Below, piece by piece: positions 27,060-63,571 of a stretch of 64,000 nucleotides of DNA. The position numbers and the translations under genes are program-made. Under the pieces are notes generated by a model that was given only the letters and a program-made list of their open reading frames with translations, was not told where the DNA came from and ran no database searches. Source of the DNA: Halomonadaceae bacterium T82-2. GTDB taxonomy: Bacteria; Pseudomonadota; Gammaproteobacteria; Pseudomonadales; Halomonadaceae. Location: contig LSBP01000005.1 of the NCBI GenBank assembly GCA_001577635.1, positions 1 through 64,000 of the forward strand, read 5' to 3'. Positions within the stretch are counted from its first letter, which is position 1. Every line of letters starts with the position of its first letter.

Positions 27060-27444
27060 GGCGTCAGGCTCCTCTCGACAGGCGATGAACGACGATGCCA
27101 CGTCGCCATCGGTATCGGCTAAAATAGCCATGTTACCATCGGCGGCCGGGGCTCGCAGCGCCCTGCCCCATGCTGGCGCGGTGCGTTGGCGCACCGCCCG
27201 TCGTGTCGAGGTATAATTCAACGCGCCGCGCTGACGGCTGCACCGCGTCACGTGCATCACCAGGCAAGCAGGGCGGAATCGGGCGAACACACGCCGATTA
27301 CGATGGCTGAGCGCGTATTCACGTGTGCCTTCCCGGCCCGATAATGATGCCCCCTGCGGGCCGGCCGAGGACAATCGCTAAGCTGTCGTTAAGAATTCGC
27401 GCCCACCCTGTCGCCACCCTCATCACGCCATCGCTGGAACTTCG
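27060..27444. other. 385-base divergent control region, TauE-like gene / ArnT-like gene
   Basis: No gene is supported. It holds a perfect TATAAT at 27212-27217, with the nearest TTG-type -35 (27186) 20 bases away, so this promoter is doubtful. A short palindrome GGCTAAAATAGCC lies at about 27118, and a YTAAG direct repeat at 27378-27393 is listed separately. Most of the region between 27220 and 27370 shows nothing recognisable. Confidence 0.4.
27378..27393 (+). promoter_or_regulatory. PmrA/QseB-like box upstream of the ArnT-like gene
   Basis: The plus strand reads GCTAAG-CTGTC-GTTAAG, a direct repeat with an 11-bp period, ending 51 bases before the start codon. Response regulators of the OmpR family such as PmrA bind YTTAAK-N5-YTTAAK repeats of this spacing. 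Two other units in this window have the same pattern in the same orientation. No convincing -10 follows. Confidence 0.5.
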
Positions 27445-29034
27445 ATGCTTCGATCCCTATCCACTCGCTTGTCGTCATGGCCCCGGATCCACACCTGGCA
27501 ATCGGGCCTGTTGCTGACCCTGGTCACCGCCGTCGCGGTCGCCGTGATCCGGGTCACCCACCTGCCGTTGATGCCCATCGACGAGACACGCTATCTCTCG
27601 GTGGCCTGGGAGATGTGGCAGCACCATAGTTTCCTGGTCCCGCTGCTCAACGGTGAGACCTACGCCCACAAACCGCCGCTGCTGTTCTGGGTGATCCAGG
27701 CTGCCTGGGCGCTGTTCGGCACCAGCGATATCGTGGCACGCCTGGCGGTCCCGACTGTCGGCCTGCTGGCCTTCCCGCTGCTGGTGGCCATCCAGCGCGA
27801 GTGGCCCGAGTCACAGGCACCGGGCATCCGCTGGGCACCGCCGGTGCTGCTGGCCATGACCATGTGGTTCGTCTACATGGCCCTGAGCATGTTCGACATC
27901 CTGCTGACCACCTGCTTCCTGGTCGCGGTGCTGGGCTGGGTGCGCTACGTACACCGCGATGATCGTCGCTGGGTATGGCTGGCCGGCTTCGGCCTGGGCC
28001 TGGCCCTGCTCGCCAAGGGGCCGGTGATCCTGATCTACTGGCTGCCGCTGACCCTGAGCATGCGCTTCTGGCGCCCCGAGGGCGTGACCATCGGCGCCCG
28101 CCACTACTGGGCGATCCTGCCGGCCACCCTGCTCGGTGCCGCCGTGGTACTGGCCTGGGCCATCCCCGCCGCGATCGATGGCGGCCCCGCCTACGCCGAG
28201 GCGATCTTCTGGGGGCAGTCCGCCGGTCGCGTGGCCAACGCCTTCGACCACGCCCGCCCCTGGTACTGGTACCTGCCGCTGCTGCCGCTTTTGACCCTGC
28301 CCTGGCCGACCGTCTGGCTATGGCGCCGTCCGCTGACGAGCGGTTCACTCGAGCGCTTCGCCCTGTGGGGCTGCCTGCCGCCGCTGGCGATCCTGAGCCT
28401 GGTCAGCGGCAAGCAGATTCACTACCTGATGCCGGCCCTGCCCTTCCTGGCGATCTGGGTGGCCGGACAGATCGAGCGTCATCCGCCGCGGCGTACCTGG
28501 CTCTACCGTGCTCTGCTGCTGGTACTCGCCGCCCTGATGGTGGCCTTGCCGGAGATCGCCCAGCGCTTCTACCCGCTGGCGCCCCTGTCCAATGCCGCGC
28601 GCCTGACGGCGCTGGTGCCGCTGGCGTTCATCGCCTGGCTGAGCCTGCATTCCCGGCGCGTGGTCATGACCCTGGCCTGGCCGCTGAGCCTGCTGGCCCT
28701 GCTGGTGGGGCTGTCGCCGGCGCTGACTCGCTACTATGACGTCACGCCGATCGCCCGCGAGATCGGCCATCAGCAACAGCAGGGCGTGCCGGTCGCCTAT
28801 ATCGGCGACTATGCCGACCAGTTCCGCTTCCTCGGCCGCCTCACCCACGACATGGCCGTGATCGACTCCGACGAGGTCGCCGCCTGGAGTGCCGACCACC
28901 CGCAGGGCGCGCTGATCGAGGTGCTCGACGAGGTCTCGCCCGCCCAGCGTGACGCGGCGCTGTTCACCCAGCCCTACCGCGGCAGCGTCCTGGTGCTGAT
29001 GCCCACCGCCCGCTACGGCCTGCTCGACCGCTGA
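27445..29034 (+). CDS. ArnT/PMT-like glycosyltransferase family 39 membrane protein
   Basis: A 529-residue polytopic protein with about twelve membrane helices. The first periplasmic loop has the family acid in LPLMPIDETRYLSVAWEM (the Asp-Glu pair near residue 46) followed by YAHKPPLLFWVIQAAW; later GLALLAKGPVILIYWLP and SGKQIHYLMPALPF are typical of ArnT. Family members move a sugar from undecaprenyl phosphate to lipid A or another envelope acceptor. There is no arnBCADEF here, so the donor is probably not the classical L-Ara4N made by neighbours. The ribosome site is weak. A PmrA-like repeat upstream fits control by envelope signals. Confidence 0.85.
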   Translation: MLRSLSTRLSSWPRIHTWQSGLLLTLVTAVAVAVIRVTHLPLMPIDETRYLSVAWEMWQHHSFLVPLLNGETYAHKPPLLFWVIQAAWALFGTSDIVARLAVPTVGLLAFPLLVAIQREWPESQAPGIRWAPPVLLAMTMWFVYMALSMFDILLTTCFLVAVLGWVRYVHRDDRRWVWLAGFGLGLALLAKGPVILIYWLPLTLSMRFWRPEGVTIGARHYWAILPATLLGAAVVLAWAIPAAIDGGPAYAEAIFWGQSAGRVANAFDHARPWYWYLPLLPLLTLPWPTVWLWRRPLTSGSLERFALWGCLPPLAILSLVSGKQIHYLMPALPFLAIWVAGQIERHPPRRTWLYRALLLVLAALMVALPEIAQRFYPLAPLSNAARLTALVPLAFIAWLSLHSRRVVMTLAWPLSLLALLVGLSPALTRYYDVTPIAREIGHQQQQGVPVAYIGDYADQFRFLGRLTHDMAVIDSDEVAAWSADHPQGALIEVLDEVSPAQRDAALFTQPYRGSVLVLMPTARYGLLDR

Positions 29035-29061
29035 GCCACCCCCTCCGCCCCCGAACACGAA

Positions 29062-29085
29062 AGGGCCCGGCATCCGCCGGGCCCT
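29062..29085. terminator. Terminator between ArnT-like and cytochrome b561 genes
   Basis: AGGGCCCGGC-ATCC-GCCGGGCCCT is a perfect 10-bp stem. On the minus strand it is followed by TTTC, so it best serves the cytochrome gene; on the plus strand it sits 27 bases after the glycosyltransferase stop. Confidence 0.7.
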
Positions 29086-29124
29086 GTCGTCAGGCACAAC
29101 TCGCGATTCGTTCACCGGGCAGCG

Positions 29125-29673
29125 TCAGGCGATATCATCCGGCCCCGGCGCCCGCTTGTGGCCGGTCACCATCGAGCGCGCCAGGTTCTCGCGATGCTGC
29201 CAGCTCGAGGCGATCACCCCGGCCACGTGCAGGCCGACCAGTGCCAGCAGGGCGTTGCCCAGGAACTGGTGAGTCTCCTGCACCCAGGCCACGCCCCAGA
29301 AGGCGTCGGTGGTCTGCAGCCAGCCGGTGAGCGCCTGCGCGGCCAGCCCCGCCAGCAGCACGGCGATCATCAGCCCCCCGGCCGGATTGTGACCGAGGTA
29401 GCGCGGTTCCCGGCGGCGTGCCATCGCCTTCAGATGACCCAGCGCCGCACCCGGCGAGGCGATGAAGTGGCGGAACCGCACGTGGTGCGGCCCCACCAGA
29501 CCCCACAGCAACCGCCAGGCGATCAGGGCGGCGACGCTGTAGCCCGCCCACTCGTGGACCGTCTGCCAGACGCCCGACGTCAGCCAGGCGGTGGCGAAGG
29601 CGGTCACCAGACTCCAGTGAAAGAGGCGCGTCCACAGGTCCCAGACCTTGATGGTGGCAGTCTCGTGGGTCAT
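29125..29673 (-). CDS. Cytochrome b561-domain membrane protein
   Basis: A 182-residue protein of the di-heme b561 / Ni-hydrogenase cytochrome-b type, with four predicted helices. Candidate heme ligands are His in LFHWSLV (19), TVHEWAGY (about 40), ETHQFLGN (about 134) and GLHVAGV (about 148). It probably passes electrons between the quinone pool and a periplasmic partner. The start is 3 bases after the stop of the PepSY gene, so the two are one unit. PepSY plus cytochrome b is a common pair in QseBC/PmrAB-linked loci of other proteobacteria; no two-component genes are present here. Confidence 0.88.
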   Translation of the reverse strand: MTHETATIKVWDLWTRLFHWSLVTAFATAWLTSGVWQTVHEWAGYSVAALIAWRLLWGLVGPHHVRFRHFIASPGAALGHLKAMARRREPRYLGHNPAGGLMIAVLLAGLAAQALTGWLQTTDAFWGVAWVQETHQFLGNALLALVGLHVAGVIASSWQHRENLARSMVTGHKRAPGPDDIA

Positions 29674-29676
29674 GGA

Positions 29677-29946
29677 TCAGTCGTCCTCGCCCCCGACCGG
29701 GGCCAGCGTCCTGGGATTGAAGTAGACTTCACGGCGATGGCCGTCGGCATCCAGCGCGTAGACCTCGTAGCAGCCCTCTTCCTGCTTGACTCGCTTGATG
29801 TCCCAGCCCTTCGCCGAGAGCTGCTGTTCCAGAGCGCTCTGGGGCTGCCACTGGTCCTTGGGCACCTGGCAGCGATCGCCGGCCAGGGCGCTGCCGGCCA
29901 GGGTCAGGGCGGCGAGGGCGGTTGCCGTCAGCACGGTCGTCTTCAT
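29677..29946 (-). CDS. Periplasmic PepSY-domain protein
   Basis: An 89-residue exported protein: Sec signal MKTTVLTATALAALTLAG with cleavage near ALA (22), then one PepSY unit containing LEQQLSAKGWDIKRVKQEEG, quoted across its two helices, and the strand YEVYALDADGHRREVYFNP. Two cysteines (about 26 and 59) could form a disulfide. Single PepSY proteins are thought to bind or modulate a sensor or redox partner; the co-transcribed cytochrome b561 is the obvious candidate. A PmrA-like direct repeat lies 66 bases upstream. Confidence 0.88.
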   Translation of the reverse strand: MKTTVLTATALAALTLAGSALAGDRCQVPKDQWQPQSALEQQLSAKGWDIKRVKQEEGCYEVYALDADGHRREVYFNPRTLAPVGGEDD

Positions 29947-30012
29947 GGAAATCTCCTCTCAGGGTGTTATTGGTGTCACGCGCGGTGACCGTGCCCACGC
30001 TAGAGCCCCAAG

Positions 30013-30029
30013 CTTAACGATGGCTTAAG
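30013..30029 (-). promoter_or_regulatory. PmrA/QseB-like box upstream of the PepSY-cytochrome b561 unit
   Basis: The minus strand reads CTTAAG-CCATC-GTTAAG, an 11-bp-period direct repeat that fits YTTAAK-N5-YTTAAK with one mismatch. It lies between the ZIP-like gene stop and the PepSY start. A TAGCGT hexamer 10 bases downstream could be a weak -10. Confidence 0.55.
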
Positions 30030-30098
30030 AGGAGAATGACGAAGCGATGACGGCGCGCGGTGCGGCCTGGCCGGGCCTGGCCTGGCCGAACCCGGGCA

Positions 30099-30809
30099 TC
30101 ACACCACCAGCACGTTGCCCAGCATACCGATCATGAAGCCCATCACCGCGCCCAGCGGCGGGGTCCAGTGATTGCGCATCCGCGACTGCGGTGCGATGTC
30201 CTGAAAGACCAGATAGAGGATCCCGCCCCCGGCGAAGGCCATGATCGCGGCGGTCAGTGCCGGCCGATCCTCCAGGAACAGGTAGCCCAGTCCTGCCGCC
30301 AGCGGCCCCAGCACGCTCACCGCCAGCAGCACCAGCAGGATCCGGCGGGAGGACAGCCCCAGCCGGCGCATGTCGCGGAAGGCGTTGAAGCCTTCCGGCA
30401 GGTTCTGCAGGCCGATGAAGGCCGCCAGCAGCGTGCCCAGCCGCCGGTCGTGGCCGAACACCGCCCCCAGCGAGATCGCCTCCGGCACGAAGTCCATGAG
30501 CAGCGCCATGAACTGTGCCCAGTTGCCGCCACGCCGCTCGAGGTAGGCATCGATCACGCAGAACAGCCCGCCCCCGACCAGAAAGGCCGCCGCCAGGCCG
30601 GCCGGCGGCAGCGCCACCATGCCCTCGGGGATCAGGGCGAAGGCCACCGCCGCCACCAGGATGCCGCCCCCGAAGGCCACGATGCCGTGCATCAGCTCCT
30701 GCTGGGTCGCCGTCCGGGCCCGCCCGCCGAGCCGGGCGCCCAGGCCGCCGGCAAAGGCGCACAGCCCGGACAGCCAGGCGACGGTGACGATGGTGGCAAG
30801 GATATCCAT
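30099..30809 (-). CDS. ZIP-family-like membrane protein with altered metal-binding motifs
   Basis: A 236-residue protein with about seven to eight helices and the ZIP topology. The two central motifs that bind metal in ZupT-type transporters (HNFPEG and HNIPEG) are MDFVPEAIS and LQNLPEGFNAF here, so both histidines are replaced (Asp-like and Gln) while the P-E core is kept. It may transport another cation or act with different affinity. The ATG at 30809 follows GGAGGGAG. Longer frames reach into the rhlE promoter. It is divergent from rhlE and tandem with the PepSY unit, from which it is separated by the PmrA-like box. Confidence 0.8.
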   Translation of the reverse strand: MDILATIVTVAWLSGLCAFAGGLGARLGGRARTATQQELMHGIVAFGGGILVAAVAFALIPEGMVALPPAGLAAAFLVGGGLFCVIDAYLERRGGNWAQFMALLMDFVPEAISLGAVFGHDRRLGTLLAAFIGLQNLPEGFNAFRDMRRLGLSSRRILLVLLAVSVLGPLAAGLGYLFLEDRPALTAAIMAFAGGGILYLVFQDIAPQSRMRNHWTPPLGAVMGFMIGMLGNVLVV

Positions 30810-30975
30810 GACGCGCGCTGCTCCCTCCGGCTCGAGATGAGGCCCGAGTATGCCACGAGCCCGTTGCCCACGACCTCCCTCGCTAGCCGCGGCGCGACTT
30901 ATCCGGTAAGCTGCAGGCCCGCTGCCCCGCCGGCACCTTCGCGCCGGCCCCATCCTGCAGCCACCGAGAGATTTC

Positions 30976-32286
<1,311 letters not shown>

Positions 32287-32306
32287 GCCGCGTTACCGAC
32301 CTGACG

Positions 32307-32351
32307 CCAGACGCACGACGGCGGGCCAATGGCCCGCCGTCGTGCGTCTGG
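32307..32351. terminator. Very long perfect hairpin between rhlE and the GntR gene
   Basis: A 21-bp uninterrupted inverted repeat with a three-base AAT loop (left arm 32307-32327, right arm 32331-32351; core GACGGCGGGCC / GGCCCGCCGTC). It sits between two convergent stops. No T tract follows, yet such length should block both transcripts or make a duplex RNA end; it is the longest perfect stem noticed in the window. Confidence 0.7.
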
Positions 32352-32360
32352 CCCATGCGT

Positions 32361-33026
32361 TCAGGGCGCCGCCGAGCAACACCCCCGCGCCACTTCGTGG
32401 GACAGCCGAATATGCGTGTCCAGCAGGGCCCGGGCTCCCTGGATGTCGCGGGCCAGCGCCAGCTCCACCAGCGCCGCGTGCTGCTCGTCCAGCGTGGTGC
32501 GGATTCCGGGGTTGGGCGGCGCCATGCGCCGATAGCGATCGAACTGGTCGTGCAGCTGGCCGATGAAGCGCAGCAACCAGGGCGACCCGCAGGCCCCCAG
32601 CAACGCCCGGTGAAAGCGCAGGTGCGCCTGTTCCCACTCCTCGATGCGCTCCGGCTGCTCGTCCGCCCGCCGCAGGCGATGCGCCGCTGCCAGCAGCTGC
32701 GACTCCCACTCGGAATCCCCGTTCTGGAACGCCTGGGTCAAGGCCATGCACTCCAGCTGCGTGCGCAGCCCGGCGATATCGTCGAGCTCCTCGAGACGCA
32801 TCGCCGGCACCCGAAAGCCCCGCTGGTTCTCCTGCTCGAGCAGGCCATAGGCCGCCAGCCGATTGAGCGCCTCGCGCAGCGGGCTCAACCCCACCCCGTA
32901 GTGCGTCTTCAGCGCGCTGATGGCGAGCTTCTCGCCGGCCGCGAAACGCCCGCGTATCAGGTCATGCTTGAGCGCCTCGAAGACCTGGCTGGACGCCGTG
33001 GTGCCGGCGGAGGGCGATGTGGTCAT
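32361..33026 (-). CDS. GntR-family transcriptional regulator, FCD subfamily
   Basis: A 221-residue regulator with an N-terminal winged helix (about 10-75; DLIRGRFAAGEKLAISALK and VGLSPLREALNRLAAYGLL) and an all-helical FCD ligand domain (about 85-210) containing the metal or acid-ligand pattern around HLRFHRALLGACGSPWLLR. FCD regulators usually sense carboxylates or amino acids and repress a divergent catabolic operon. It faces the GGT-CHR-TTT operon with 140 bases between starts, where two AATCGATT palindromes are likely operators. It ends against the long hairpin shared with rhlE. Confidence 0.92.
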   Translation of the reverse strand: MTTSPSAGTTASSQVFEALKHDLIRGRFAAGEKLAISALKTHYGVGLSPLREALNRLAAYGLLEQENQRGFRVPAMRLEELDDIAGLRTQLECMALTQAFQNGDSEWESQLLAAAHRLRRADEQPERIEEWEQAHLRFHRALLGACGSPWLLRFIGQLHDQFDRYRRMAPPNPGIRTTLDEQHAALVELALARDIQGARALLDTHIRLSHEVARGCCSAAP

Positions 33027-33071
33027 GGTGCCCCTCTCGTTGATCGATCGCGGTGACGAAAAAACAGGCTG

Positions 33072-33100
33072 TTGACGTTATCCCAGTCACGGGCCATAGT
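33072..33100 (+). promoter_or_regulatory. Predicted promoter of the GGT-CHR-TTT operon
   Basis: TTGACG at 33072-33077 and CATAGT at 33095-33100 are exactly 17 bases apart, inside an AT-rich stretch. Transcription would begin near 33107 and run through the AATCGATT palindromes before the start codon at 33167, so a bound regulator could block elongation. Confidence 0.5.
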
Positions 33101-33112
33101 CATTTCCCTAAA

Positions 33113-33157
33113 AATCGATTTTTTTATCAATAACGATTTATACCACAACAATCGATT
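33113..33157. promoter_or_regulatory. Candidate GntR operators: paired AATCGATT palindromes
   Basis: Two perfect 8-bp palindromes AATCGATT lie at 33113-33120 and 33150-33157, 37 bases apart, with a partial AACGATT copy between them. The segment is about 75 percent A+T in a high-GC genome and sits between a GntR gene and its presumed target, which is typical for an autoregulated divergent operator. Confidence 0.5.
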
Positions 33158-33166
33158 GGAGACGGC

Positions 33167-34801
33167 ATGCTGACGCCCTTTTCCCCCGCCACCCCGTATC
33201 CTTCGCAACGCAGTGCCACCTATGCCCGTCATGGCATGGTCGCCGCCTCCCAGCCCCAGGCCAGCCAGATCGGCCTCGACATGCTCGCGCGCGGCGGCAA
33301 CGCGGTGGATGCCGCCATCGCCACCGCCGCGGCCTTGACGGTCGTCGAGCCGACCGGCTGCGGCATCGGCGGCGATGCCTTCGCGCTGGTGTGGATCGCC
33401 GATGATAATCACGGCAAGGGCCGGCTCCACGGGCTCAATGCCAGCGGCCAGGCCCCCCAGGCCCTGACCCGCGAGGCGGTGATGGCGTCAGGCCACGGCG
33501 AAATGCCGCTCTACGGCTGGACGCCGGTCACGGTGCCGGGTACCCCCGCCGCCTGGGCCGAGCTGTCACGCCGTTTCGGCAAGCTGGATTTCGCCACCCT
33601 GCTGGAACCGGCGATCCGCCTGGCCCGCGACGGCTTTCCCGTGTCGCCGGTCATCGCCAGCCTCTGGCAGCGCGCCGAGTCCACTTTCCGCAAGCACCTG
33701 ACCGACCCCGCCACGGCCGCCTGGTTCGACACCTTCACGCCGGCGGGACGCGCCCCGCGGGCCGGCGAGTGGCACCGCTGCGAGGACCAGGCCCGCACCC
33801 TGGAGGCGATCGCCGAGACCCGCGCCGAGAGCTTCTATCGCGGCGAGCTCGCCGAACGCATCGACGTCTTCTCCCGCGAGACCGGCGGCTACCTGCGTGG
33901 CACGGACCTCGCCGCCTACGCGCCCGAGTGGGTCACGCCCATCGCCGCGCGCTACCGGGACGTGGATGTCTGGGAAATCCCCCCCAACGGACAGGGCCTG
34001 GTGGCGCTGATGGCCCTGCGCATCCTGGAAGGCTTCGATCCGGTCGGGCGCGACGACCCGGCCACCCTGCATCGCCAGCTCGAGGCCATGAAACTGGCGT
34101 TCATCGACGGCCAGACCCACATCACCGAACCCGCGCACATGACGCACGACGTCGCCGCCCTGCTGAGCGACGCCTACACCCGGGAGCGGCGCGCCCTGAT
34201 CGGCGAGCACGCCCTCGACCCGCGCCCCGGTCAGCCGCAGGCCGGCGGTACCGTCTACCTGGCCACCGCCGACGACGCCGGCAACATGGTGTCGTTCATC
34301 CAGAGCAACTATCACGGCTTCGGCTCCGGCGTGGTGGTACCGGGCACCGGCATCGCCATGCAGAACCGCGGCCACAACTTCAGCCTCGACCCCGGGCACG
34401 ACAACGTGCTGGCTCCGGGCAAGAAGACCTTCCACACCATCATTCCGGGCTTTCTGACCCGCGACGACGGCGTGCCGCTGGGCCCGTTCGGGGTGATGGG
34501 CGGCTTCATGCAGCCCCAGGGGCACGTCCAGGTGGTGACCAACCTGGTCGACTTCGGCCTGAACCCGCAGGCCGCGCTCGACGCGCCCCGCTGGCAATGG
34601 ATGGGCGGCAGGCGCATCGGCGTCGAGCATCATTTCCCCGCGCCCCTGGTGCGCGCCATGGCCGAGCGTGGCCATGACATGCGGGTCGAGCATGACAGTC
34701 GCGGCTTCGGACGCGGGCAGATGATCATTCGCGACCCCGACACCGGGGTCTACTGCGGCGGGACCGAACCGCGCACCGACGCCAGCATCGCGGTGCTGTG
34801 A
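33167..34801 (+). CDS. Gamma-glutamyltransferase-family hydrolase, cytosolic type
   Basis: A 544-residue Ntn-hydrolase of the GGT family. The early block AASQPQASQIGLDMLARGGNAVDAA is quoted as ASQPQASQIGLDML and GGNAVDAAIA, then GCGIGGDAFALVW. The likely autoprocessing nucleophile is Thr362 in QAGGTVYLATADDAGNMVS, where DAGN matches the family DxxGN. There is no signal peptide, unlike the periplasmic glutathione-degrading GGT, so substrates must be inside the cell; it resembles YwrD-like proteins. A GGAG site precedes the ATG. It leads the operon with two CHR proteins and a tripartite tricarboxylate transporter. The natural substrate is unknown. Confidence 0.88.
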   Translation: MLTPFSPATPYPSQRSATYARHGMVAASQPQASQIGLDMLARGGNAVDAAIATAAALTVVEPTGCGIGGDAFALVWIADDNHGKGRLHGLNASGQAPQALTREAVMASGHGEMPLYGWTPVTVPGTPAAWAELSRRFGKLDFATLLEPAIRLARDGFPVSPVIASLWQRAESTFRKHLTDPATAAWFDTFTPAGRAPRAGEWHRCEDQARTLEAIAETRAESFYRGELAERIDVFSRETGGYLRGTDLAAYAPEWVTPIAARYRDVDVWEIPPNGQGLVALMALRILEGFDPVGRDDPATLHRQLEAMKLAFIDGQTHITEPAHMTHDVAALLSDAYTRERRALIGEHALDPRPGQPQAGGTVYLATADDAGNMVSFIQSNYHGFGSGVVVPGTGIAMQNRGHNFSLDPGHDNVLAPGKKTFHTIIPGFLTRDDGVPLGPFGVMGGFMQPQGHVQVVTNLVDFGLNPQAALDAPRWQWMGGRRIGVEHHFPAPLVRAMAERGHDMRVEHDSRGFGRGQMIIRDPDTGVYCGGTEPRTDASIAVL

Positions 34802-34803
34802 CC

Positions 34804-35364
34804 ATGGCGTCGCAACGACAGCTGTTTCTCGCCTTCCTGCGCGTGGGCCTGTTCGGCTTCGGCGGCGGCCCGTCGATGATCCCGCTGGTGCACCAGGAGG
34901 TGGTCAAGCGCCATGCCTGGATGGACGACGAGGCCTTCGCCGACGTGCTGGCGATCGGCAACACCCTGCCCGGCCCCATCGCCACCAAGATGGCCGGCTA
35001 CATCGGCTATCGGGTCGGGGGTGCCCTGGGCGCCGTCAACGCGGTGATCGCCGTGGTCGCCCCGGTGGTGGTCGCCATGGTCGCGCTGCTCGGGCTCTAC
35101 GCCCGGCACGGTGACCAGGGCTGGGTCCAGGGCATGGGCCAGGGCGTGGTGCCGGTGGTGATGGTGATGATGGCCAGGCTGACGCTGGATTTCTTCAACA
35201 AGGCCCGGGCCGGCCTCGGCTGGGTGCTCACCCTGGCCCTGGGCGGCGCGGCGGGCGTGCTGATCTACGGGCTCGGCATCCACCCGGGGCTGGTGATCGG
35301 CGCCCTGCTCGTCGCCGCCCTGCTGCGCCCCGAACGGCGCGAGTCCACGAAGGAGGCCAACTGA
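34804..35364 (+). CDS. CHR-family (chromate transporter) N-type half protein
   Basis: A 186-residue single-domain member of the CHR superfamily with about five to six helices. It has the family motif VGLFGFGGGPSMIPLVHQEVV at the N-terminus (quoted as FGFGGGPSMIPL) and LPGPIATKMAGYIGYRVGG in the middle. Short CHR proteins work as pairs of opposite topology. It follows the GGT stop almost directly; GTG at 34798 is an alternative start that overlaps the stop by 4 bases. Its stop overlaps the next CHR gene by one base (TGATG). Association with GGT and TTT makes export of chromate unlikely as its main role. Confidence 0.85.
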   Translation: MASQRQLFLAFLRVGLFGFGGGPSMIPLVHQEVVKRHAWMDDEAFADVLAIGNTLPGPIATKMAGYIGYRVGGALGAVNAVIAVVAPVVVAMVALLGLYARHGDQGWVQGMGQGVVPVVMVMMARLTLDFFNKARAGLGWVLTLALGGAAGVLIYGLGIHPGLVIGALLVAALLRPERRESTKEAN

Positions 35365-54946: not shown

Positions 54947-55717
54947 ATGACGCAACGCACCCTGGACTGCTGGCTGACCGATATGGACGGCGTCCTGATC
55001 CACGAGGATCGCGCCCTGCCCGGCGCGGCCGAGCTGATCGACCACTGGCGCAGTCAGGGCACGCCCTTTCTGGTGCTTACCAACAACTCCATCTATACCC
55101 CGCGGGATTTGAGTGCCCGCCTGGCACGAATCGGCCTCGAGGTACCGGAAGAGCGCATCTGGACCTCGGCGCTGGCCACCGCCGCTTTCCTGCGTGACCA
55201 GTGCCCCGGCGGCTCGGCGTTCGTGATCGGCGAGGCCGGCCTGACCACGGCGATCCACGAGGCCGGCTTCGTGATGACCGACGTGGCCCCGGACTTCGTG
55301 GTGCTGGGCGAGACGCGCACCTACTCCTTCGAGGCGATCACCCGGGCGATCCGCCTGATCGAGGACGGCGCGCGCTTCATCGCCACCAATCCCGATGTCA
55401 CCGGTCCCAGCCCCGAAGGGCCGATGCCGGCCACCGGCTCGGTGGCGGCCCTCATCACCGCCGCCACCCAGCGCCAGCCCTACTACGTCGGCAAACCCAA
55501 CCCGATGATGTTCCGCTCGGCGCTCAACCGCCTCGGCGCCCACTCCGAACGCACCGGGATGATCGGCGATCGCATGGACACCGACGTGGTGGCGGGCATC
55601 GAGGCGGGGCTGCACACCGTGCTGGTGCTCAGCGGCATCGCCACCCGCGACGACGTGGAGCGCTACCCCTACCGCCCGCGGGAGATCCTCGACTCGGTGG
55701 CCGACCTGCTGCCCTGA
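54947..55717 (+). CDS. HAD-IIA family phosphatase, NagD-like
   Basis: A 256-residue HAD hydrolase. Motif I with the nucleophile is TDMDGVLI (Asp12, Asp14), motif II FLVLTNNSIY, the C2-type cap between, and motif III/IV in PYYVGKPNPMMF and GMIGDRMDTDVVAGIEAG. Length and order match E. coli NagD (250 aa), a nucleotide-monophosphate or sugar phosphatase; here there is no nag operon, so the substrate is open. The ATG at 54947 follows AAGGA. A hairpin shared with yghU lies beyond the stop. Confidence 0.92.
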   Translation: MTQRTLDCWLTDMDGVLIHEDRALPGAAELIDHWRSQGTPFLVLTNNSIYTPRDLSARLARIGLEVPEERIWTSALATAAFLRDQCPGGSAFVIGEAGLTTAIHEAGFVMTDVAPDFVVLGETRTYSFEAITRAIRLIEDGARFIATNPDVTGPSPEGPMPATGSVAALITAATQRQPYYVGKPNPMMFRSALNRLGAHSERTGMIGDRMDTDVVAGIEAGLHTVLVLSGIATRDDVERYPYRPREILDSVADLLP

Positions 55718-55729
55718 GCCCCAAGCACG

Positions 55730-55759
55730 GACGCCCGACCCCTTACGGGGCCGGGCGTC
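55730..55759. terminator. Hairpin between nagD-like gene and yghU
   Basis: GACGCCCG-A-CCCC-TTAC-GGGG-C-CGGGCGTC: two GC stems separated by one mismatch, with a four-base loop, between convergent stops. No T tract. Probably a bidirectional transcript end. Confidence 0.6.
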
Positions 55760-55780
55760 GCCGTCGGGCACGCGGCCCGT

Positions 55781-56650
55781 TCACGAGGACTGCAGCTTGT
55801 CCTGCGTGCGCGTCTCGAAGTCGCTGGCGTCGTGGCGCTCGTGGAGCTGGGTTTCCGGCTCGCCGAAGGTACGGTTGACCATGCGCCCGCGCTGCACCGC
55901 CGGGCGGGCATCGATCTCCTTCGCCCAGCGCACCACGTGGGTGTACTCCTGCACCTGCAGGAACTCCGCCGCATCGTAGAGCCGCCCCAGCGCCAGCTGG
56001 CCGTACCAGGCCCAGTTGGCGATATCGGCAATGGTGTAGTCATCGCCGGCCAGATAGCGGCTCTCGGCCAGGCGCCGGTCGAGCACGTCGAGCTGGCGCT
56101 TGGCCTCCATCGCATAGCGGTCAATGGGGTATTCGAGCTTCTCCGGGGCGTAGGCATAGAAGTGCCCGAAACCGCCGCCCAGGAAGGGCGCGCTGCCCAT
56201 CTGCCAGAACAGCCAGTTGAGCGCCTCGGTGCGCGCGCCGTGATCCGTGGGCAGCAGGGTGCCGAATTTCTCGGCCAGATACAGCAGGATCGAGCCGGAC
56301 TCGAACACCCGGGTCGGCGGCTGGGTGGTGTGGTCCATCAGCGCGGGGATCTTCGAGTTGGGATTGGCCGCGACGAAGCCGCTTCCGAACTGCTCGCCCT
56401 CGCCGATATCGATCAGCCAGGCGTCGTATTCGGCGTCATGACCGAGAGCCAGCAGCTCCTCGAACATCACCCCGGCCTTCACGCCGTTGGGCGTGGCCAG
56501 CGAATAGAGCTGGAACGGGTGTTCACCGACAGGCAGCTCCTTGTCGTGGGTCGGCCCCGCGACAGGGCGGTTGATGCTGGCGAACTTGCCGCCACTGGCC
56601 TTCTCCCACGTCCAGACCTTCGGCGGTGTGTACTCGGTGCCTTGGCTCAT
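55781..56650 (-). CDS. yghU: Glutathione S-transferase-like disulfide-bond oxidoreductase YghU
   Basis: A 289-residue Nu-class GST. N-terminal extension of about 45 residues (NRPVAGPTHDKELPVGEHPF) then the thioredoxin domain with QLYSLATPNGVKAGVMFEEL, where Thr/Asn replace the Cys or Ser catalytic residue as in YghU. NPNSKIPALMD and FESGSILLYLAEKFGTLLP are the glutathione site. The helical domain ends in AVQRGRMVNR. Nu-class enzymes bind two glutathione molecules and have disulfide reductase activity. It is convergent with the nagD-like gene and divergent from the chemoreceptor. Confidence 0.92.
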   Translation of the reverse strand: MSQGTEYTPPKVWTWEKASGGKFASINRPVAGPTHDKELPVGEHPFQLYSLATPNGVKAGVMFEELLALGHDAEYDAWLIDIGEGEQFGSGFVAANPNSKIPALMDHTTQPPTRVFESGSILLYLAEKFGTLLPTDHGARTEALNWLFWQMGSAPFLGGGFGHFYAYAPEKLEYPIDRYAMEAKRQLDVLDRRLAESRYLAGDDYTIADIANWAWYGQLALGRLYDAAEFLQVQEYTHVVRWAKEIDARPAVQRGRMVNRTFGEPETQLHERHDASDFETRTQDKLQSS

Positions 56651-56845
56651 GCGGCCTCCTGCGTCGATTGATGAACTCGGACCCTGGCGAACAGCCTGAT
56701 GGCCGCCGCCTGAAAAGGTAGTCTGTTAATCATTGGGGCGCGGCTCGGGGGCTTCAAGTCTTGCGTTGTCGGGGGCTCAGGGGATCGTGCTGCAACACCG
56801 CCAGCTTCCGAACGAGACCAGTCTGGAAATCAGGCCTCAATCCAC

Positions 56846-56872
56846 TTAATTTTCCCATAAGCTGGCCGATAA
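56846..56872 (+). promoter_or_regulatory. Sigma-28 (FliA) promoter of the chemoreceptor gene
   Basis: TTAATTTT, 11 bases, GCCGATAA. The -10 is an exact match to the sigma-28 consensus GCCGATAA, and the -35 matches TAAAGTTT at six of eight positions with the exact N11 spacing. The transcript would start near 56880, about 84 bases before the start codon. This places the chemoreceptor in the late flagellar regulon. It is the most important element in the 313-base gap after yghU. Confidence 0.8.
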
Positions 56873-56963
56873 TCGTTACCGGCAGACGACCATCCAACGA
56901 AAACAATGACACGCCTCTCCTGACTGCCCTACACGAACACGGATCATAAAGGGAAGCCCTCAC

Positions 56964-58952
56964 ATGAGGCATGTCATGCAGCACCTCTCGATGAAGCGCA
57001 AGTTTCTGCTCGTACTCGCGCTTCCCATACTAGCCATGCTCTACTTCGCCATCAGCGGTGCCATCGAGCGTCAGCAGGTCGCGGCGGGGATGTCCCGGCT
57101 TTATACCTTCACGTCGCTGGCAAAGCAGGCGGGTAATCTGGTTCATGAACTTCAGCGCGAACGGGGCATGACGGCCGGCTTTCTCGGCAGCCAGGGAAAA
57201 CGCTTCAAGGAGCGCCTGAGTGAACAGAGACAGTCGTCCGATCAACGCGTGTCGCGCTTGCTGAGTACGCTGGATACTATCGACGTACGGCAACTCGGCC
57301 AGGCGGCCGGCGCCAGCATCGCCAGGGCCAGGAAGGATCTGGGTAACATTCAGGCCGTGCGTCGTCAGGTGGATTCGCTGAGCCTGCCTCTCCATGACGC
57401 CCTGGCCTATTACACCGGGATCGACAACGCCCTGGTGACGCTCGCCGGTCAACTCAGCCACCGGACCGGCAATGCCGATATCGCACGGCGCCTGACCGCT
57501 TACCACGAGCTGCTGAAGGCCAAGGATCTGGCCGGCATTGAACGCGCCCTGCTGGCCAATACCTTCGCTGCCGATCAGATGACAGCGGACACATACCGTC
57601 GCTTCCTGCGCCTGCTGGGCACCGAAACCGCCGCCCTGGACAGTTTCAAGGTGCTGGCCGACCCCGGCCTTGTCGAACGCTACACGCAGGCCCTCTCCGG
57701 CCCCGAGATGGCACGCCTGGATGACCTGCGCAAGCTGGCCATCGAACGGGCCGATCAGGGCCACTTCGGCGTGGACCCACAACAGTGGTTCGACTGGCAG
57801 ACCACCAAGCTCGAGCGCCTGAAAGGCATCGAGGATGCCGCCGCCGACAGCATTCTGGACGAGGCCAGGAACCTGCGGCATTCGGCCAATACCGCCCTGT
57901 GGACCTATATTGCCGTGGCTCTGGGTGTTCTATTGCTGACTCTGGCACTGGCCCTGCTCATCGTGCGCAGCATTCTCCTGCCCCTGAATCGCAACCTGCA
58001 GGCCATCCAGACCCGCGGCGGCGACCTGACACAACGGCTCGACGCCGCAGGGAGCGATGAACTGGCCCGTCTTTACCAAGCCTTCAATCAGGCTACCGAA
58101 GATACCGAAACGCTGGTGGCACGGATTCGTCGCAATGCGCAATCCATCGACCTGGCCAGTGGCGAAATCGCTCAGGGTAACCAGGACCTGGCCCAGCGTA
58201 CCGAAGAACAGTCAGCCTCTCTGGTGGAAACGGCCTCCAGCATGGAGCAGATGACCTCGACTGTGCACAACACCGCCCAGCATGCCAGCCAGGCGCGCAC
58301 CCTGGCCCGGGACGTCAGTGAACAGGCACTTCAGGCACAAGGGGTGGCGGATCAGGCGCGTGACGCCATGCATAATATCGAGGCTGCCAACCAGGAGGTC
58401 ACCACCATCGTCGGCACCATCGACAGCATTGCGTTCCAGACCAACCTGCTGGCGCTCAATGCCTCGGTGGAGGCCGCCCGTGCCGGTGAGCACGGCAAGG
58501 GCTTCGCCGTGGTGGCCGAGGAAGTTCGCAAGCTGGCCAGTCGCAGTGCCGGCGAGGCCAGCCGAATCCGCGAGCACATCAACCGCAACGTCACCACCAT
58601 CGACCGGGGCAACACACTGGTCAGCGATACTCACGCGACCCTCGCCGAGATCGCCACACGCATCGAGCAGGTGTCGACGCTGGTCACGGACATTGCCAAC
58701 GCTTCCACAGAACAGTCGTCAGGAATCGAGCAGATCAATCAGGCCGTGGCCCAGCTCGACGAGGTGACCCAGCAGAACGCCGCGCTGGTCGAACAGGTTG
58801 CCGCCGCCAGCCGTTCACTCAACGAGCAGGCCAGTGACATGGTGTCCCGGGTCGAGCATCTCAGGGTCAGCGATCAGCCGGTTTCAACGCCCGCTTCGCT
58901 GACGCACACGCCCTCCCGGGAGTCCCGTCGTCGGGCAACCGAAATCGCCTGA
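56964..58952 (+). CDS. Methyl-accepting chemotaxis protein with NIT sensor domain
   Basis: A 662-residue chemoreceptor. Order: short N-terminus, first helix (about 12-32, [18 protein letters not shown]), periplasmic nitrate/nitrite-sensing NIT-type domain (about 50-300, beginning [18 protein letters not shown]), second helix (about 312-335, [19 protein letters not shown]), HAMP (about 336-390), and the signalling hairpin with its tip [20 protein letters not shown] and [20 protein letters not shown]. There is no C-terminal CheR pentapeptide. NIT domains respond to nitrate/nitrite in some proteins, but the ligand here is uncertain. ATG 56964 has AAGGGA upstream; ATGs at 56976 and 56991 are possible. 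Confidence 0.93.
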
Positions 58953-58963
58953 CGCCACCGGCC

Positions 58964-58988
58964 GGCCGGGAAGCCCGGCTTCCCGGCC
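58964..58988. terminator. Hairpin between chemoreceptor and tpm
   Basis: GGCCGGGAAGCC and GGCTTCCCGGCC form a 12-base inverted repeat around a single central base, folding as a nine-bp stem with a small loop. It lies between convergent stops, 11 bases after the chemoreceptor stop. Confidence 0.6.
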
Positions 58989-58993
58989 CCGAG

Positions 58994-59665
58994 TCACACC
59001 AGCGCCCGGACAGCCTCCCGCTCCAGCCGCCAGGCGATCTCCTCGAAGCGCGTCACCCCGGCTTCGCGAAAACGCGCCTGATGGGCGATCACGTCCTTGC
59101 GCGACAGTTCGGTGAGAGCGTGAGCGTCGCCATAGAGGCGTTGCAGTTCGTCCGGCAGCACCGGGAACGGCGGCCCCGGCATCTCCCGGTGGTCGTACTC
59201 GAAGGCGATCAGCAGCTGCGGCGCCTCGCCCGACAGGGTCAGCACCTGGGCCACGTAGGTCTTGCGCATCGCTTCCGGCAGCGCTACCAGCGCCGCCCGG
59301 TCGTAGACCAGGTCCACGCGCCCCAGCGCGCCGGCCGGCAGTGCAAAGATATCGCCCTGGAAGACGGTCAGCCCACCGTGGCGCCAGCGTCGGCCACCCT
59401 CCCAGTCATCGATCGTCGGCTCGACGCCCAGCTCCTCGAACAGCTGGCCGACCGCCAGCTCGCTGAGCTCCGCGCCCACTACCTCGTACCCTTGCGACAG
59501 CAGCCAGCCGATGTCCCGCGTCTTGCCGCACAGCGGCACGAAGACCCGCGCCCCGGCCGGCAGGCCGAAGCCGGGCAGGTAGCGCTCGAGAATCGGGTGG
59601 ACGAAGGGCAGGTGAAAGCCCAGCTGGGCGTTCTGCCAGCGGGATCGCCAGAAGTCGGCTTCCAT
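58994..59665 (-). CDS. tpm: Thiopurine S-methyltransferase
   Basis: SAM-dependent methyltransferase of 223 residues, the length of bacterial TPMT, which methylates thiopurines and also selenium or tellurium species. The start MEADFWRSRWQNAQLGFH, FVPLCGKTRDIGWLLSQGY (SAM motif), VVGAELSELAVGQLFEE and DLVYDRAALVALPEAMRK (acidic motif) are diagnostic, as is LIAFEYDHREMPGPPFPV. The ATG at 59665 gives the conserved N-terminus; the frame upstream to 59806 is not protein-like. It is followed convergently by the chemoreceptor hairpin. Confidence 0.95.
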   Translation of the reverse strand: MEADFWRSRWQNAQLGFHLPFVHPILERYLPGFGLPAGARVFVPLCGKTRDIGWLLSQGYEVVGAELSELAVGQLFEELGVEPTIDDWEGGRRWRHGGLTVFQGDIFALPAGALGRVDLVYDRAALVALPEAMRKTYVAQVLTLSGEAPQLLIAFEYDHREMPGPPFPVLPDELQRLYGDAHALTELSRKDVIAHQARFREAGVTRFEEIAWRLEREAVRALV

Positions 59666-59756
59666 CGGGATGCTCCGGTTGACGACAGGGGGTCCGAGTA
59701 TGCCGCATGTCCCCGGGGATGACACCCGCCGCCCCGGCGGGTGCGCCCCAGAGACG

Positions 59757-61463
59757 TCAACGATGCCGATCATCCGGCTCGGTCCGGGCCTCCCCACGCG
59801 CGACATCCTCGCGGCTGACGACCATCACCTCGCGCGGCCACCACTCCGGGTGATGGTCCCGTATGAAGGCCATCATGCGTTCCCGGATGTTCATCTCCGC
59901 CACCCAGCCGGCGAAGGGGTCCGAGGTCATCAGATAGCAGATGAACGTCTGCGCCATGTCGGTCTGCCCCGTCACGTAACAGCACAGCTTGTGATGCTCG
60001 ATGACGTTGTCCTCCTCCTGGGCGTACTCCATGAACTTCTCCCGCAGGCACTGGATATCCGCGCTCAGGTGCACGCTCATCTCCAGGCTGCGGTACTCCT
60101 TGGCGTTCTTGACCGAGAGGTTCTCGAAGGGCTTGGAGACGAAATAGGTGACCGGCACGATCACGCGGCGCTCGTTCCACGACCGCAGCCGGATGAAGGT
60201 ATAGAAGATGCCCTCCACATGGCACCACTGGCCCTCGAACATCACCAGATCGCCGATACGGATGGACTTCGCCAGCGACAGCTGAAACGACGACAGGATA
60301 TTGCCCAGCACGGCCTGGCCGGCGATACCTACCAGCACCGTCAGCACACTGGCGGAAGCGAGCAGCGACATGCCCAGCGTCTCGAAGAGCTGGATCTGGC
60401 TCAGCACGTAGACCGATACGGCGGTGACCGTGACCAGAATGATCAGCCGGCGCAGCGCGTAGAGCGTGGTCAGCAGCTTGCGGTCATCCTTGTGCTTGGT
60501 GTCGTCGATCTGCCCCATCAGGCGCCGCGTCATCCGCAGCATGACGGTATCGACGAGACGGATCGCGATGGTCCCCGCGCCCCAGGCCAGAATCGCGATC
60601 AGCAGCACCCGAAAGGACGTGGTGACCACCGCCGAGAAGGACACCACGTAGTCCAGCAGCGCTTGGGTCACCAGCGACATGACGATGAGCGCCACCGGCA
60701 TGCGGATCTGGCTGGCGAAGATGCTGGGCGCCCCGGCGGGCAGGAAACGCTTGATCAGGCCGACCAGCCGGTAGATCCACCAGCCCGTCAGGCCGACCGC
60801 CACCAGCACGAGGGGAATGGCGATCCACTCCCAGATCTTGAGCAGCCCGAACGACTTCTTCAGCGGTTGGGGGATATAGGATTCCAGAAACGACGGGCCG
60901 TATTTCTCGTAGAGCAGCGGCACCGACGAGACACTGTCCGGCATGACCAGCCATACCGGCTCCTGGTCGCCCACCCGGTACCGGCCCAGCCGGATGTCGT
61001 AGGCTTCCCCCTGGGCGGTGAGCGAGGCCAGCTTGATGTTGCGACGCGGCTTGCCCGCATGGGGGCGCTTGTCCGCCGGGTGCTCGTTGGCGGCATCCTG
61101 GCGACCGGGCAGGCTGGACACCTCGAGCCACTCGCCCCGCCTGAGCACCTCGGCCAATTGCATGGCGAGCGTGCCGCCGCGCTTGCGCTGCTCCGCCGGT
61201 TCCAGCTCGGAAAGGTTGAGGATATGCGCCGCCGCGCCGAAATCCTCCTGTTTCGTCAACTCCAGAAAACTCCGGATCGCTTCCCGCGGGGTCGACCGCT
61301 TGACCACCTTGGGCGCCTCGCCCAGGCCCGCATTCAGCGAATCGACGGAGAACCAGAGCTCCGACTTATCCTCCTCGTCCTGAGGTTGCGCCATGCACAG
61401 GCTGGAAAATACCAGCGCCACTGCAGCGACCAGCCACAGCCGCCACGAATCGTTTTTCGTCAT
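59757..61463 (-). CDS. MscS-family mechanosensitive channel with periplasmic N-terminal domain
   Basis: A 568-residue inner-membrane channel that likely releases solutes on hypo-osmotic shock, important for a salt-adapted cell. It has a Sec signal (SWRLWLVAAVALVFSSLCMA, cleavage about 25), a periplasmic domain (about 25-205), then five to six helices, the pore segment containing VGIAGQAVLGNILSSFQLS, and the MscS beta domain SIRIGDLVMFEGQWCHVEGI with VPVTYFVSKPFENLSVKN. The C-terminal soluble domain ends REVMVVSREDVARGEARTE. ATG 61463 follows TAAGGGA. It resembles the YbdG/YnaI-size class rather than the small MscS. A hairpin (about 59724-59742) follows its stop. Confidence 0.88.
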   Translation of the reverse strand: MTKNDSWRLWLVAAVALVFSSLCMAQPQDEEDKSELWFSVDSLNAGLGEAPKVVKRSTPREAIRSFLELTKQEDFGAAAHILNLSELEPAEQRKRGGTLAMQLAEVLRRGEWLEVSSLPGRQDAANEHPADKRPHAGKPRRNIKLASLTAQGEAYDIRLGRYRVGDQEPVWLVMPDSVSSVPLLYEKYGPSFLESYIPQPLKKSFGLLKIWEWIAIPLVLVAVGLTGWWIYRLVGLIKRFLPAGAPSIFASQIRMPVALIVMSLVTQALLDYVVSFSAVVTTSFRVLLIAILAWGAGTIAIRLVDTVMLRMTRRLMGQIDDTKHKDDRKLLTTLYALRRLIILVTVTAVSVYVLSQIQLFETLGMSLLASASVLTVLVGIAGQAVLGNILSSFQLSLAKSIRIGDLVMFEGQWCHVEGIFYTFIRLRSWNERRVIVPVTYFVSKPFENLSVKNAKEYRSLEMSVHLSADIQCLREKFMEYAQEEDNVIEHHKLCCYVTGQTDMAQTFICYLMTSDPFAGWVAEMNIRERMMAFIRDHHPEWWPREVMVVSREDVARGEARTEPDDRHR

Positions 61464-61677
61464 GCGTCCCTTACCGATATTCAGTGGGTCATCCGTGTCA
61501 TCCACCGCCCGCCGAGCCAATCCCGGTCCGGCGGGCCGCGCCTGCCGACCGGCCTTCCGGGCCGGTCACCGTTCAAGTACAGCCCACCGGCTGGCGGGGC
61601 GTCCACAACATGAGTCAGCAAATACTGACGATTGAGGTCAGGCTGAGTGACACCAGGTTCGTCATGCGGGCAGGCAC

Positions 61678-61707
61678 AAAAAAGCCCTCCGGCCAGAGGC
61701 GGAGGGC
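61678..61707 (-). terminator. Rho-independent terminator of the cytochrome b gene
   Basis: On the minus strand GCCCTCCG-N8-CGGAGGGC is followed by TTTTTT. It begins 41 bases after the cytochrome b stop. With the tRNA-Lys terminator it is one of only two with a proper U tract in the window. Confidence 0.85.
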
Positions 61708-61747
61708 AGCGAGGACATGTCGGACGGGACGCCGGCAGCAGCGCCTG

Positions 61748-62320
61748 TTACGGGCTGGGGAAACGTGAACGGAAGAAGATATGCAGGATGCCCATGGCCC
61801 CGTGGCCAATGATGTAGGCCTCGATCAGCCCGGTCAGCAGGGCATGGACCGATCCCGCCTGAGGCGCCCAGGGCAGGTGATAGCTCCAGGAAATGAACCA
61901 GGTGAAGCCCGAGAACACCACAAGCAGCAGCGCCCCCAGCCCCAGGCCGTGCATGATGGCCGCCAGCCCGCCGGGGCCCGGCTCCGGCATGCGCAGCCGC
62001 AGCAGCGTGCGCAGATCAGCCATCAACGGCGCGACATTGCCCACCAGCCAGGGAAAGTAGTAACGCAGGCCGCGATGCCGGATCACCGCGAACAGGAAGA
62101 TCAGCGAGATCGGCACCAGCAGCAGCCCCATGCCGATATGCAGCCAGGTGCCATAGCGCTCGGGGAGCTGGCTAGCCACCTCGCCCGTCCGGGTGAATCC
62201 CATGAAATTGCTGAGGATGATCTGGCCGATCACCATCGACAGCACGGTCAGGTGAAACGCCAGCACGAGCGGTGTCTGGCGCTCCCGGAAATACCCCATG
62301 GTGGTGCCCACTACGTTCAT
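61748..62320 (-). CDS. Cytochrome b/b6-domain membrane protein
   Basis: A 190-residue protein with four to five helices. Candidate heme ligands are His in LAFHLTVLSM (about 23), TWLHIGMGLL (about 61), IMHGLGLGALL (about 124) and AYIIGHGAMGILHIF (about 173 and 181). This is the Ni-hydrogenase cytochrome-b/b561-like layout. The redox partner is unknown. I chose the ATG at 62320, which has GGAAGGG upstream; a GTG five codons earlier is in that site. A PmrA-like direct repeat lies 110 bases upstream and a strong terminator follows. A broken copy of its C-terminal end occurs at 63486-63566. Confidence 0.85.
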   Translation of the reverse strand: MNVVGTTMGYFRERQTPLVLAFHLTVLSMVIGQIILSNFMGFTRTGEVASQLPERYGTWLHIGMGLLLVPISLIFLFAVIRHRGLRYYFPWLVGNVAPLMADLRTLLRLRMPEPGPGGLAAIMHGLGLGALLLVVFSGFTWFISWSYHLPWAPQAGSVHALLTGLIEAYIIGHGAMGILHIFFRSRFPSP

Positions 62321-62743
62321 TCGCCCTTCCCCCACGTTACGTATCGAGCCGACGACCCTGTTTCCGGGCCTGCCGGCGTGGCGCGCTCCGGCGATCCACG
62401 ACTCGCCGAATGTAGTGATACCACCGCTATCTTAGCTTTAGCTTAAGGGAATGGGGGAGACAGATCGGCTTGACCGTCGTTCCTCCATCCGCCCTCGCCC
62501 CCATCCCGAACGACTCACGCTGACCCGCGAAGAGCTAAAATTGTTATTTGCAAAATACCGACGCCTTCTACACTGGGGAGTGACCGCAAGGCTCTCCGGC
62601 AACATTCAACAAAAAGGAATCGATCGCAGAAACATCGTGGCCGTTGTCGGCAGCATGGTGTGGATGACAGGGGGCTTGGCTACCCGGTCCCACCCGAGGA
62701 CAACAGACTGAATCAAATACGGACGTTATCAAGGGGTGTTATT
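62321..62743. other. 423-base divergent control region, cytochrome b / outer-membrane protein
   Basis: No gene is supported; an 86-codon plus frame at 62451 has its ribosome site inside the regulatory repeat and no recognisable product. The region contains the direct repeat at 62431-62447 and a possible plus-strand promoter TTTGCA-N16-TACACT (62547-62574), which would give a leader of about 165 bases for the barrel protein. The part 62530-62640 is AT-rich. Confidence 0.4.
62431..62447 (-). promoter_or_regulatory. PmrA/QseB-like box upstream of cytochrome b
   Basis: The minus strand reads CTTAAG-CTAAA-GCTAAG, the same 11-bp-period repeat seen before the ArnT-like and PepSY genes. A TATCAC hexamer lies 10 bases downstream as a possible -10. 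The distance to the start codon is about 110 bases. Confidence 0.5.
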
Positions 62744-63566: not shown

Positions 63567-63571
63567 CGACC

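What the first reader, a model, noticed from the sequence alone, without database searches (positions are those of the whole stretch)
27378..62447. Shared NYTAAG-N5-GYTAAG direct repeat upstream of three envelope units
Three sites have the same architecture: GCTAAG-CTGTC-GTTAAG (27378, ArnT-like), CTTAAG-CCATC-GTTAAG (minus, 30013-30029, PepSY-cytochrome b561) and CTTAAG-CTAAA-GCTAAG (minus, 62431-62447, cytochrome b). All have an 11-bp period and the same orientation relative to the gene, and all control lipid A/membrane redox-type proteins. This is the format of PmrA/QseB boxes (YTTAAK-N5-YTTAAK). TTAAG words are rare in this GC-rich window, so three oriented pairs are unlikely by chance. 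Inference: a QseBC/PmrAB-like system elsewhere in the genome controls them, with ArnT and PepSY as classic targets.
Basis: partly seen in the sequence, partly recalled or inferred. Interest (0 to 1): 0.7.

Follow-up and report, generated by a model that had tools for sequence, protein, structure and literature searches.

The report
PmrA/QseB-type operator boxes in Halomonadaceae
Three short paired DNA words in this stretch look like docking sites for a sensor-driven gene switch found elsewhere in the same salt-loving bacterium, and they belong to a set of about eleven such sites, mostly in front of genes that remodel the cell envelope.

Summary
In detail: three exact, oriented YTAAG-N6-YTAAG repeats; shuffles give none. 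The genome has 11 such places. Among TTAAG/YTAAG pairs, gap 6 occurs at 10 places against about 0.5 expected per gap. The other sites precede a regulator/kinase operon, GT2/LAB_N/ArnT-like genes, GT9, PAP2, YrbL, MgtE, DUF2231 and T_hemolysin genes. The regulator is PmrA/QseB-like (below both family cut-offs) and carries the box in its own promoter, as do 23 of 30 Halomonadaceae loci. A -10-like signal follows at a fixed distance; in 151 family genomes box plus -10 occurs 283 times, the shifted control 78. The box also equals the published BqsR box, so the site cannot settle the name. Against: genomes without a close orthologue also exceed control, and only 12 of 40 boxes examined in relatives precede fitting genes. 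Best reading: an autoregulated PmrA/QseB-class activator regulon, ordinary in kind; binding, direction and signal are unmeasured.

The parts
27377..27393 (+). Box 1: GCTAAG-CTGTC-GTTAAG
   Evidence: Exact match; same sequence before the orthologue in G002, GCTAAGACTCCCTTAAG in G011, one mismatch in G006
27404..27409 (+). Putative -10 hexamer CACCCT, 10 bp after box 1
   Evidence: Fixed-distance A/T signal; hexamer printed; inferred
27445..29034 (+). ArnT-like glycosyltransferase (PMT_2), 529 aa
   Evidence: PF13231 35.7 bits; NCBIfam ArnT model 53.6 bits against cut-off 567
30013..30029 (-). Box 2: CTTAAG-CCATC-GTTAAG
   Evidence: Exact match; in G002, G011, G009 and G008 the second half reads TTCAG, one mismatch, 75 to 98 bp before the protein match
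29997..30002 (-). Putative -10 hexamer TAGCGT, 10 bp after box 2
   Evidence: inferred
29677..29946 (-). PepSY_2 protein, 89 aa
   Evidence: PF13670 94.3 bits
29125..29673 (-). Cytochrome b561, second gene of the PepSY unit
   Evidence: PF01292 88.6 bits; 3 bp between the PepSY stop and its ATG
62431..62447 (-). Box 3: CTTAAG-CTAAA-GCTAAG
   Evidence: Exact match; CTTAAGCTGAAGCTAAG before the only orthologue found, in G002
62415..62420 (-). Putative -10 hexamer TATCAC, 10 bp after box 3; a partial fit (A at position 27, but C not T at 31)
   Evidence: inferred
61748..62317 (-). Cytochrome b (Ni_hydr_CYTB family), 189 aa
   Evidence: PF01292 40.2 bits; match in 2 of 38 genomes, the own one included

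Best explanation
The three repeats are operators of one autoregulated two-component system of the PmrA/QseB/BqsR class, encoded at G000:C23 (response regulator 6887-7549 minus, QseC/PmrB-like kinase 5451-6890 minus). When its kinase senses an envelope or cation signal (inferred, not identified), the phosphorylated regulator binds head to tail, one subunit per YTAAG half-site, in the place of the -35 element and 10 bp before the -10 hexamer, and recruits RNA polymerase (class II activation; inferred from geometry). It would switch on envelope glycosylation and lipid-carrier genes (two ArnT-like transferases, GT2, LAB_N, GT9, PAP2, a DedA/PAP2 fusion), a magnesium transporter (MgtE), YrbL and periplasmic redox units (PepSY with cytochrome b561, cytochrome b). 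Shown: sites, spacing, neighbours, conservation, regulator. Inferred: binding, direction of control, signal.
For: Gap-6 excess over 22 other gaps. Box within 350 bp before the regulator in 23 of 30 Halomonadaceae loci, either orientation counted, against 0 to 2 for each of 18 other gaps (at least one of the 30 is a duplicate, L042 = G005; in G009 the exact pair is only in reverse); 9 of 67 more distant loci at gap 6, 0 at any of the 18 others. Only 1 of 10 Trans_reg_C proteins of the genome has the helix VEVHIH. Of five residues that PMC3973317 names in its docked PmrA-DNA model, Asn188, His193 and His195 are identical, Lys153 is Arg and Thr187 is Ser (alignment, counted by hand). A at position 27 and T at 31 after box start: 8 and 8 of 11 own sites, 24 and 24 of 29 sites from relatives that I picked by their genes. 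In 151 family genomes box plus -10: 283 matches, shifted control 78, reversed control 68; 62 of 71 genomes with the regulator have one against 41 of 80 without. In the near relative G002, 10 of 11 sites lie before the same orthologues, four with changed spacers, and the eleventh has one mismatch. yrbL promoters carry PmrA sites in enterics (PMC3335776 and PMC2681069, passages).
Against: No binding or expression data. 41 of 80 genomes without a close orthologue also have box plus -10 (124 matches against 50 shifted), so more distant paralogues may read the same box and the pairing is not exclusive. 7 of 30 regulator loci lack an exact box: G006, G001, G016, G022, G020, L043, L044. In relatives the bare pattern is often rarer than its backwards control, and of 40 box places looked at outside G000 and G002 only 12 stand before envelope or regulator genes of the kinds seen here; 6 have no ORF within 320 bp. 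The -10 signal is absent at MgtE and YrbL and partial at DUF2231 and at window site 3. The genome tests are not corrected for kinship.
Confidence: 0.87

Rival explanations
1. The boxes are read mainly by another OmpR-type regulator of the genome (for example the paralogue at C4, recognition helix SNALNVHIYQLRRKL), or by two regulators with overlapping specificity.
For: Genomes without the close orthologue still show an excess of box plus -10 (124 against 50); relatives carry paralogues at about 45-58% identity; PepSY genes sit beside such paralogues in G003 and G013.
Against: Only the C23 regulator has VEVHIH; the box is kept in its own promoter; box-plus-10 counts are higher where its orthologue is present (rank test P = 7e-5, uncorrected for kinship).
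Confidence: 0.1
2. The regulator acts as a repressor at some sites, as reported for PmrA at yrbL and pmrD, so the regulon is mixed.
For: Passages on yrbL and pmrD repression by PmrA; 3 of 11 boxes are palindromic and give no direction; no -10 fit at YrbL.
Against: At 7 of 11 own sites both -10 positions fit at one fixed distance, with the box in the -35 place, as in class II PhoP promoters.
Confidence: 0.15
3. Chance matches in AT-richer intergenic DNA.
For: Low counts and comparable backwards-control counts in many relatives; 28 of 40 relatives' places without a fitting gene.
Against: Gap-6 specificity, conservation with changing spacers, the fixed -10 distance. Applies to single sites in relatives, hardly to the own set.
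Confidence: 0.02

Closest known systems
BqsR (CarR) operator of Pseudomonas aeruginosa, TTAAG(N)6TTAAG
   Same: Same half-sites and spacing; activator; in one promoter the most downstream pentamer overlaps -35 (PMC4682146 passages)
   Different: The receiver here scores higher with a BasS-partner (PmrA) chain than with CarR (112.6 against 94.7 bits); Fe(II) sensing not tested
PmrA (BasR) regulon of enteric bacteria
   Same: Box CTTAAG-N5-XTTAAT, head-to-tail binding (PMC3973317 passages); ArnT-like and YrbL neighbours; best structure and the 5 listed E. coli DNA matches are BasR
   Different: Second half ends in G here (required by my pattern); below the PmrA equivalog cut-off (231 against 330); MgtE, PepSY/cytochrome b561 and PAP2 units. 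ArnT as a classic PmrA target is recalled
QseB/QseC
   Same: Similar regulator and kinase scores (222 and 211 bits)
   Different: Below both cut-offs (345 and 475)
PhoP architecture I promoters of Salmonella
   Same: Single direct-repeat box 11-12 nt before -10, overlapping -35, class II (PMC3335776 passages)
   Different: Half-site is GTTTA there, YTAAG here

Membership tests
PmrA/QseB/BqsR class of OmpR-type regulons | Response regulator with receiver and Trans_reg_C domains, next to a histidine kinase | tested here: met
   Response_reg, Trans_reg_C, HisKA and HATPase_c found; the two ORFs overlap by 4 bp
PmrA/QseB/BqsR class of OmpR-type regulons | Tandem TTAAG-like half-sites with 11-bp period, also in the regulator's own promoter | tested here: met
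PmrA (BasR) orthologue | NCBIfam PmrA equivalog cut-off (330 bits) | tested here: not met
   231.2 bits
PmrA (BasR) orthologue | Residues Lys153, Thr187, Asn188, His193, His195 of the docked DNA model | tested here: inconclusive
   3 of 5 identical, Arg and Ser at the other two
PmrA (BasR) orthologue | Control of a full arn operon and eptA (recalled) | not tested
   presence of these genes was not searched
QseB orthologue | NCBIfam QseB equivalog cut-off (345 bits) | tested here: not met
   222.2 bits
BqsR (CarR) | Operator TTAAG(N)6TTAAG | tested here: met
   8 of 11 own sites are exactly this; 3 have one CTAAG half
BqsR (CarR) | Response to Fe(II) | not testable with these tools
   needs expression data
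PhoP | Box (T/G)GTTTA-N5-(T/G)GTTTA | tested here: not met
   The half-sites read YTAAG

The most novel reading that the evidence does not exclude
In Halomonadaceae one PmrA-class system ties envelope glycosylation and lipid-carrier recycling to periplasmic electron transfer (PepSY with cytochrome b561) and magnesium transport, so that lipid remodelling and metal or redox handling answer as one programme to a cation or metal signal.
Probability: 0.35. Interest if true: 0.5.

Novelty: new member of a known kind. Interest (0 to 1): 0.37.

Why it matters
It gives a concrete, testable regulon with a matched regulator for a family of halophiles; the searches (one open-licence library) listed no account of one. 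It extends a regulatory logic known from enteric bacteria and Pseudomonas, and names PepSY/cytochrome b561, MgtE, YrbL and T_hemolysin genes as candidate members, which gives these poorly understood proteins a functional context.

Tried and rejected
Chance origin of the own set was rejected by spacing, conservation and -10 geometry. A PhoP operator was rejected on sequence. Strict orthology to PmrA or QseB was rejected on cut-offs. Counting the bare pattern in relatives did not discriminate: the backwards control is often as high or higher. Of 40 box places in relatives other than G002 that one search printed, 12 fit (PAP2, metallophosphatase, BacA, PepSY, GT9, GT2, regulator, T_hemolysin), 28 do not; 8 of the 40 come from genomes without the close orthologue (G003, G004, G015, G019, G021) and none of these 8 fits. 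Two of the 12 (the G005 pair in L208) were judged by likeness to the scanned G007 proteins. Boxes before asd-like (G003, G005) and trpS-like (G007, G012) genes recur; G003 lacks the orthologue; unexplained. The kinase has HE(M/L)EE after its first membrane helix in 26 of 29 sequences read (one of 30 gave no kinase); I do not call it a metal site. A full arn operon or eptA was not searched, nor sites whose second half ends in T. Rows left out: one search took 17 promoter loci and 12 further sites, not all available; one search took 28 of 30 ArnT-like loci; one search skipped places with identical site and flank. In one search a genome counts as carrying the regulator only at E <= 1e-85. DedA, class II and TrpS/Asd labels rest on recalled knowledge of the Pfam domains.
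Full report
Observation. The three repeats are exact and correctly oriented; the first starts at 27377. Shuffles of the window give none. The window (67% GC) has 12 YTAAG words on both strands, 6 of which make up these three pairs.

Genome. The window is part of a 3.42 Mb genome (G000, contig 33). The closest named relatives of its regulator are Halomonas, Chromohalobacter, Vreelandella and Salinicola, so I place it in Halomonadaceae. YTAAG-N6-YTAAG occurs at 11 places there (14 strand matches, because 3 are palindromic; backwards control 7). Varying the gap from 0 to 22 for TTAAG/YTAAG pairs puts the excess at 6: 13 strand matches, against 12 at the other 22 gaps together.

Neighbours. The downstream genes (families) are: ArnT-like transferase (window 27445); PepSY_2 plus cytochrome b561 (window 29946 to 29125); cytochrome b (window 62317); response regulator plus kinase (C23); GT2, LAB_N and ArnT-like genes, divergent from the regulator (C23); GT9 followed by SirB (C20); PAP2, then a VTT(DedA)/PAP2 fusion (C20); YrbL (C37); MgtE (C41); DUF2231 (C13); T_hemolysin, followed by an AMP-binding enzyme (C54). 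I read all 11 places as intergenic, setting aside overlapping mechanical ORFs, and the 8 directional ones all point toward the gene.

Regulator. The C23 response regulator scores 231 bits with PmrA and 222 with QseB, below both cut-offs (330, 345), and its kinase 211 with QseC and 197 with PmrB, below cut-offs 475 and 314. The best solved structures are BasR, and the 5 E. coli DNA matches listed, of 5361 records, are basR. Among 10 Trans_reg_C proteins of the genome only this one has the helix VEVHIH. Of five residues named in a docked Klebsiella PmrA-DNA model (PMC3973317, passages) three are identical.

Conservation. Within 350 bp before the regulator, 23 of 30 Halomonadaceae loci have an exact pair at gap 6 (either orientation; at least one locus is a duplicate), against 0 to 2 at each of 18 other gaps; of 67 more distant loci 9 have gap 6 and none any other gap tested. 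For the ArnT-like gene, of 28 loci read (30 fetched) the own one, G002 and G011 are exact and G006 has one mismatch; no remote homologue has an exact box, three have one-mismatch matches (two reversed, one at -293). For PepSY, of 11 loci the own one is exact, four have one mismatch (TTCAG) at similar distance, and six remote ones lack it. Cytochrome b has one orthologue, with the box. In G002 ten of eleven sites precede the same orthologues (protein identity 77-100%), four with changed spacers; the PepSY site has one mismatch. Of 40 further places in other relatives 12 stand before fitting genes (PAP2, metallophosphatase, BacA, PepSY, GT2, GT9, T_hemolysin, regulator) and 28 do not. In G008 the regulator, a PepSY gene and an ArnT-like gene lie within about 9 kb.

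Promoter geometry. Outside the box the strongest columns in 11 own sites are an A at position 27 and a T at position 31, 8 of 11 each, both together in 7, which fits a -10 hexamer starting 10 bp after the box; MgtE and YrbL have neither, DUF2231 and window site 3 only one. In 29 sites from relatives, which I chose by their genes, each is 24 of 29. Without choosing, 151 family genomes have 283 matches to box plus A/T at these positions, 78 when A/T are moved by 3 bp, and 68 for the pattern read backwards. Of 71 genomes with a close regulator orthologue 62 have at least one match, of 80 without 41 (Fisher P = 2e-6; rank test P = 7e-5; neither corrected for kinship). The shifted control shows no such difference (P = 0.71). 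Genomes without the orthologue still exceed their control (124 against 50), so other regulators of this class may read the same box.

Known systems. BqsR of P. aeruginosa is an activator with the operator TTAAG(N)6TTAAG; in one dissected promoter the downstream pentamer overlaps -35 (PMC4682146, passages). Salmonella PmrA boxes are CTTAAG-N5-XTTAAT (PMC3973317). Salmonella PhoP promoters of architecture I have one box 11-12 nt before -10 and are predicted class II (PMC3335776, passages). yrbL promoters carry PmrA sites in enterics, there with repression. A Halomonas paper mentions a qseB gene next to tsdB; its passages show no regulon (PMC9237845). Searches listed no account of such a regulon in this family; the library lacks most subscription papers, and of those listings I opened only PMC9237845.

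Verdict. The system is best read as an autoregulated PmrA/QseB/BqsR-class regulon, a new member of a known kind; its exact name, signal and direction of control remain to be measured.

Noticed in passing
window 63492-63656 (-): A remnant with 45% identity to the last 55 residues of the cytochrome b at 61748, with one stop inside, in an ORF region without Pfam match (63265-63858); looks like a decayed paralogue.
   Followed up: no
window 30099-30977 (-): A ZIP metal transporter gene directly upstream of the PepSY/cytochrome b561 unit, which hints at a metal link.
   Followed up: partly
window 56845-56860 (-): A one-mismatch box TTATGGGAAAATTAAG; gene context not examined.
   Followed up: no
L017:7775-7799: Three TTAAG words in a row (gaps 3 and 6) between the regulator and the divergent GT2 gene.
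   Followed up: no
L196, L211 (asd-like); L198, L206 (trpS-like): Recurring boxes before asd-like genes in G003 and G005 and trpS-like genes in G007 and G012 that do not fit an envelope regulon (L196 and L198 scanned).
   Followed up: partly
L213 (G002:C1:307839): A box 104 bp before a 632-aa ORF in G002 with no counterpart among the own 11 sites.
   Followed up: no
NZ_CP130611.1 and NZ_CP011053.1: Regulator homologues at about 75% identity on plasmid records of Halomonas sp. HAL1 and KO116.
   Followed up: no
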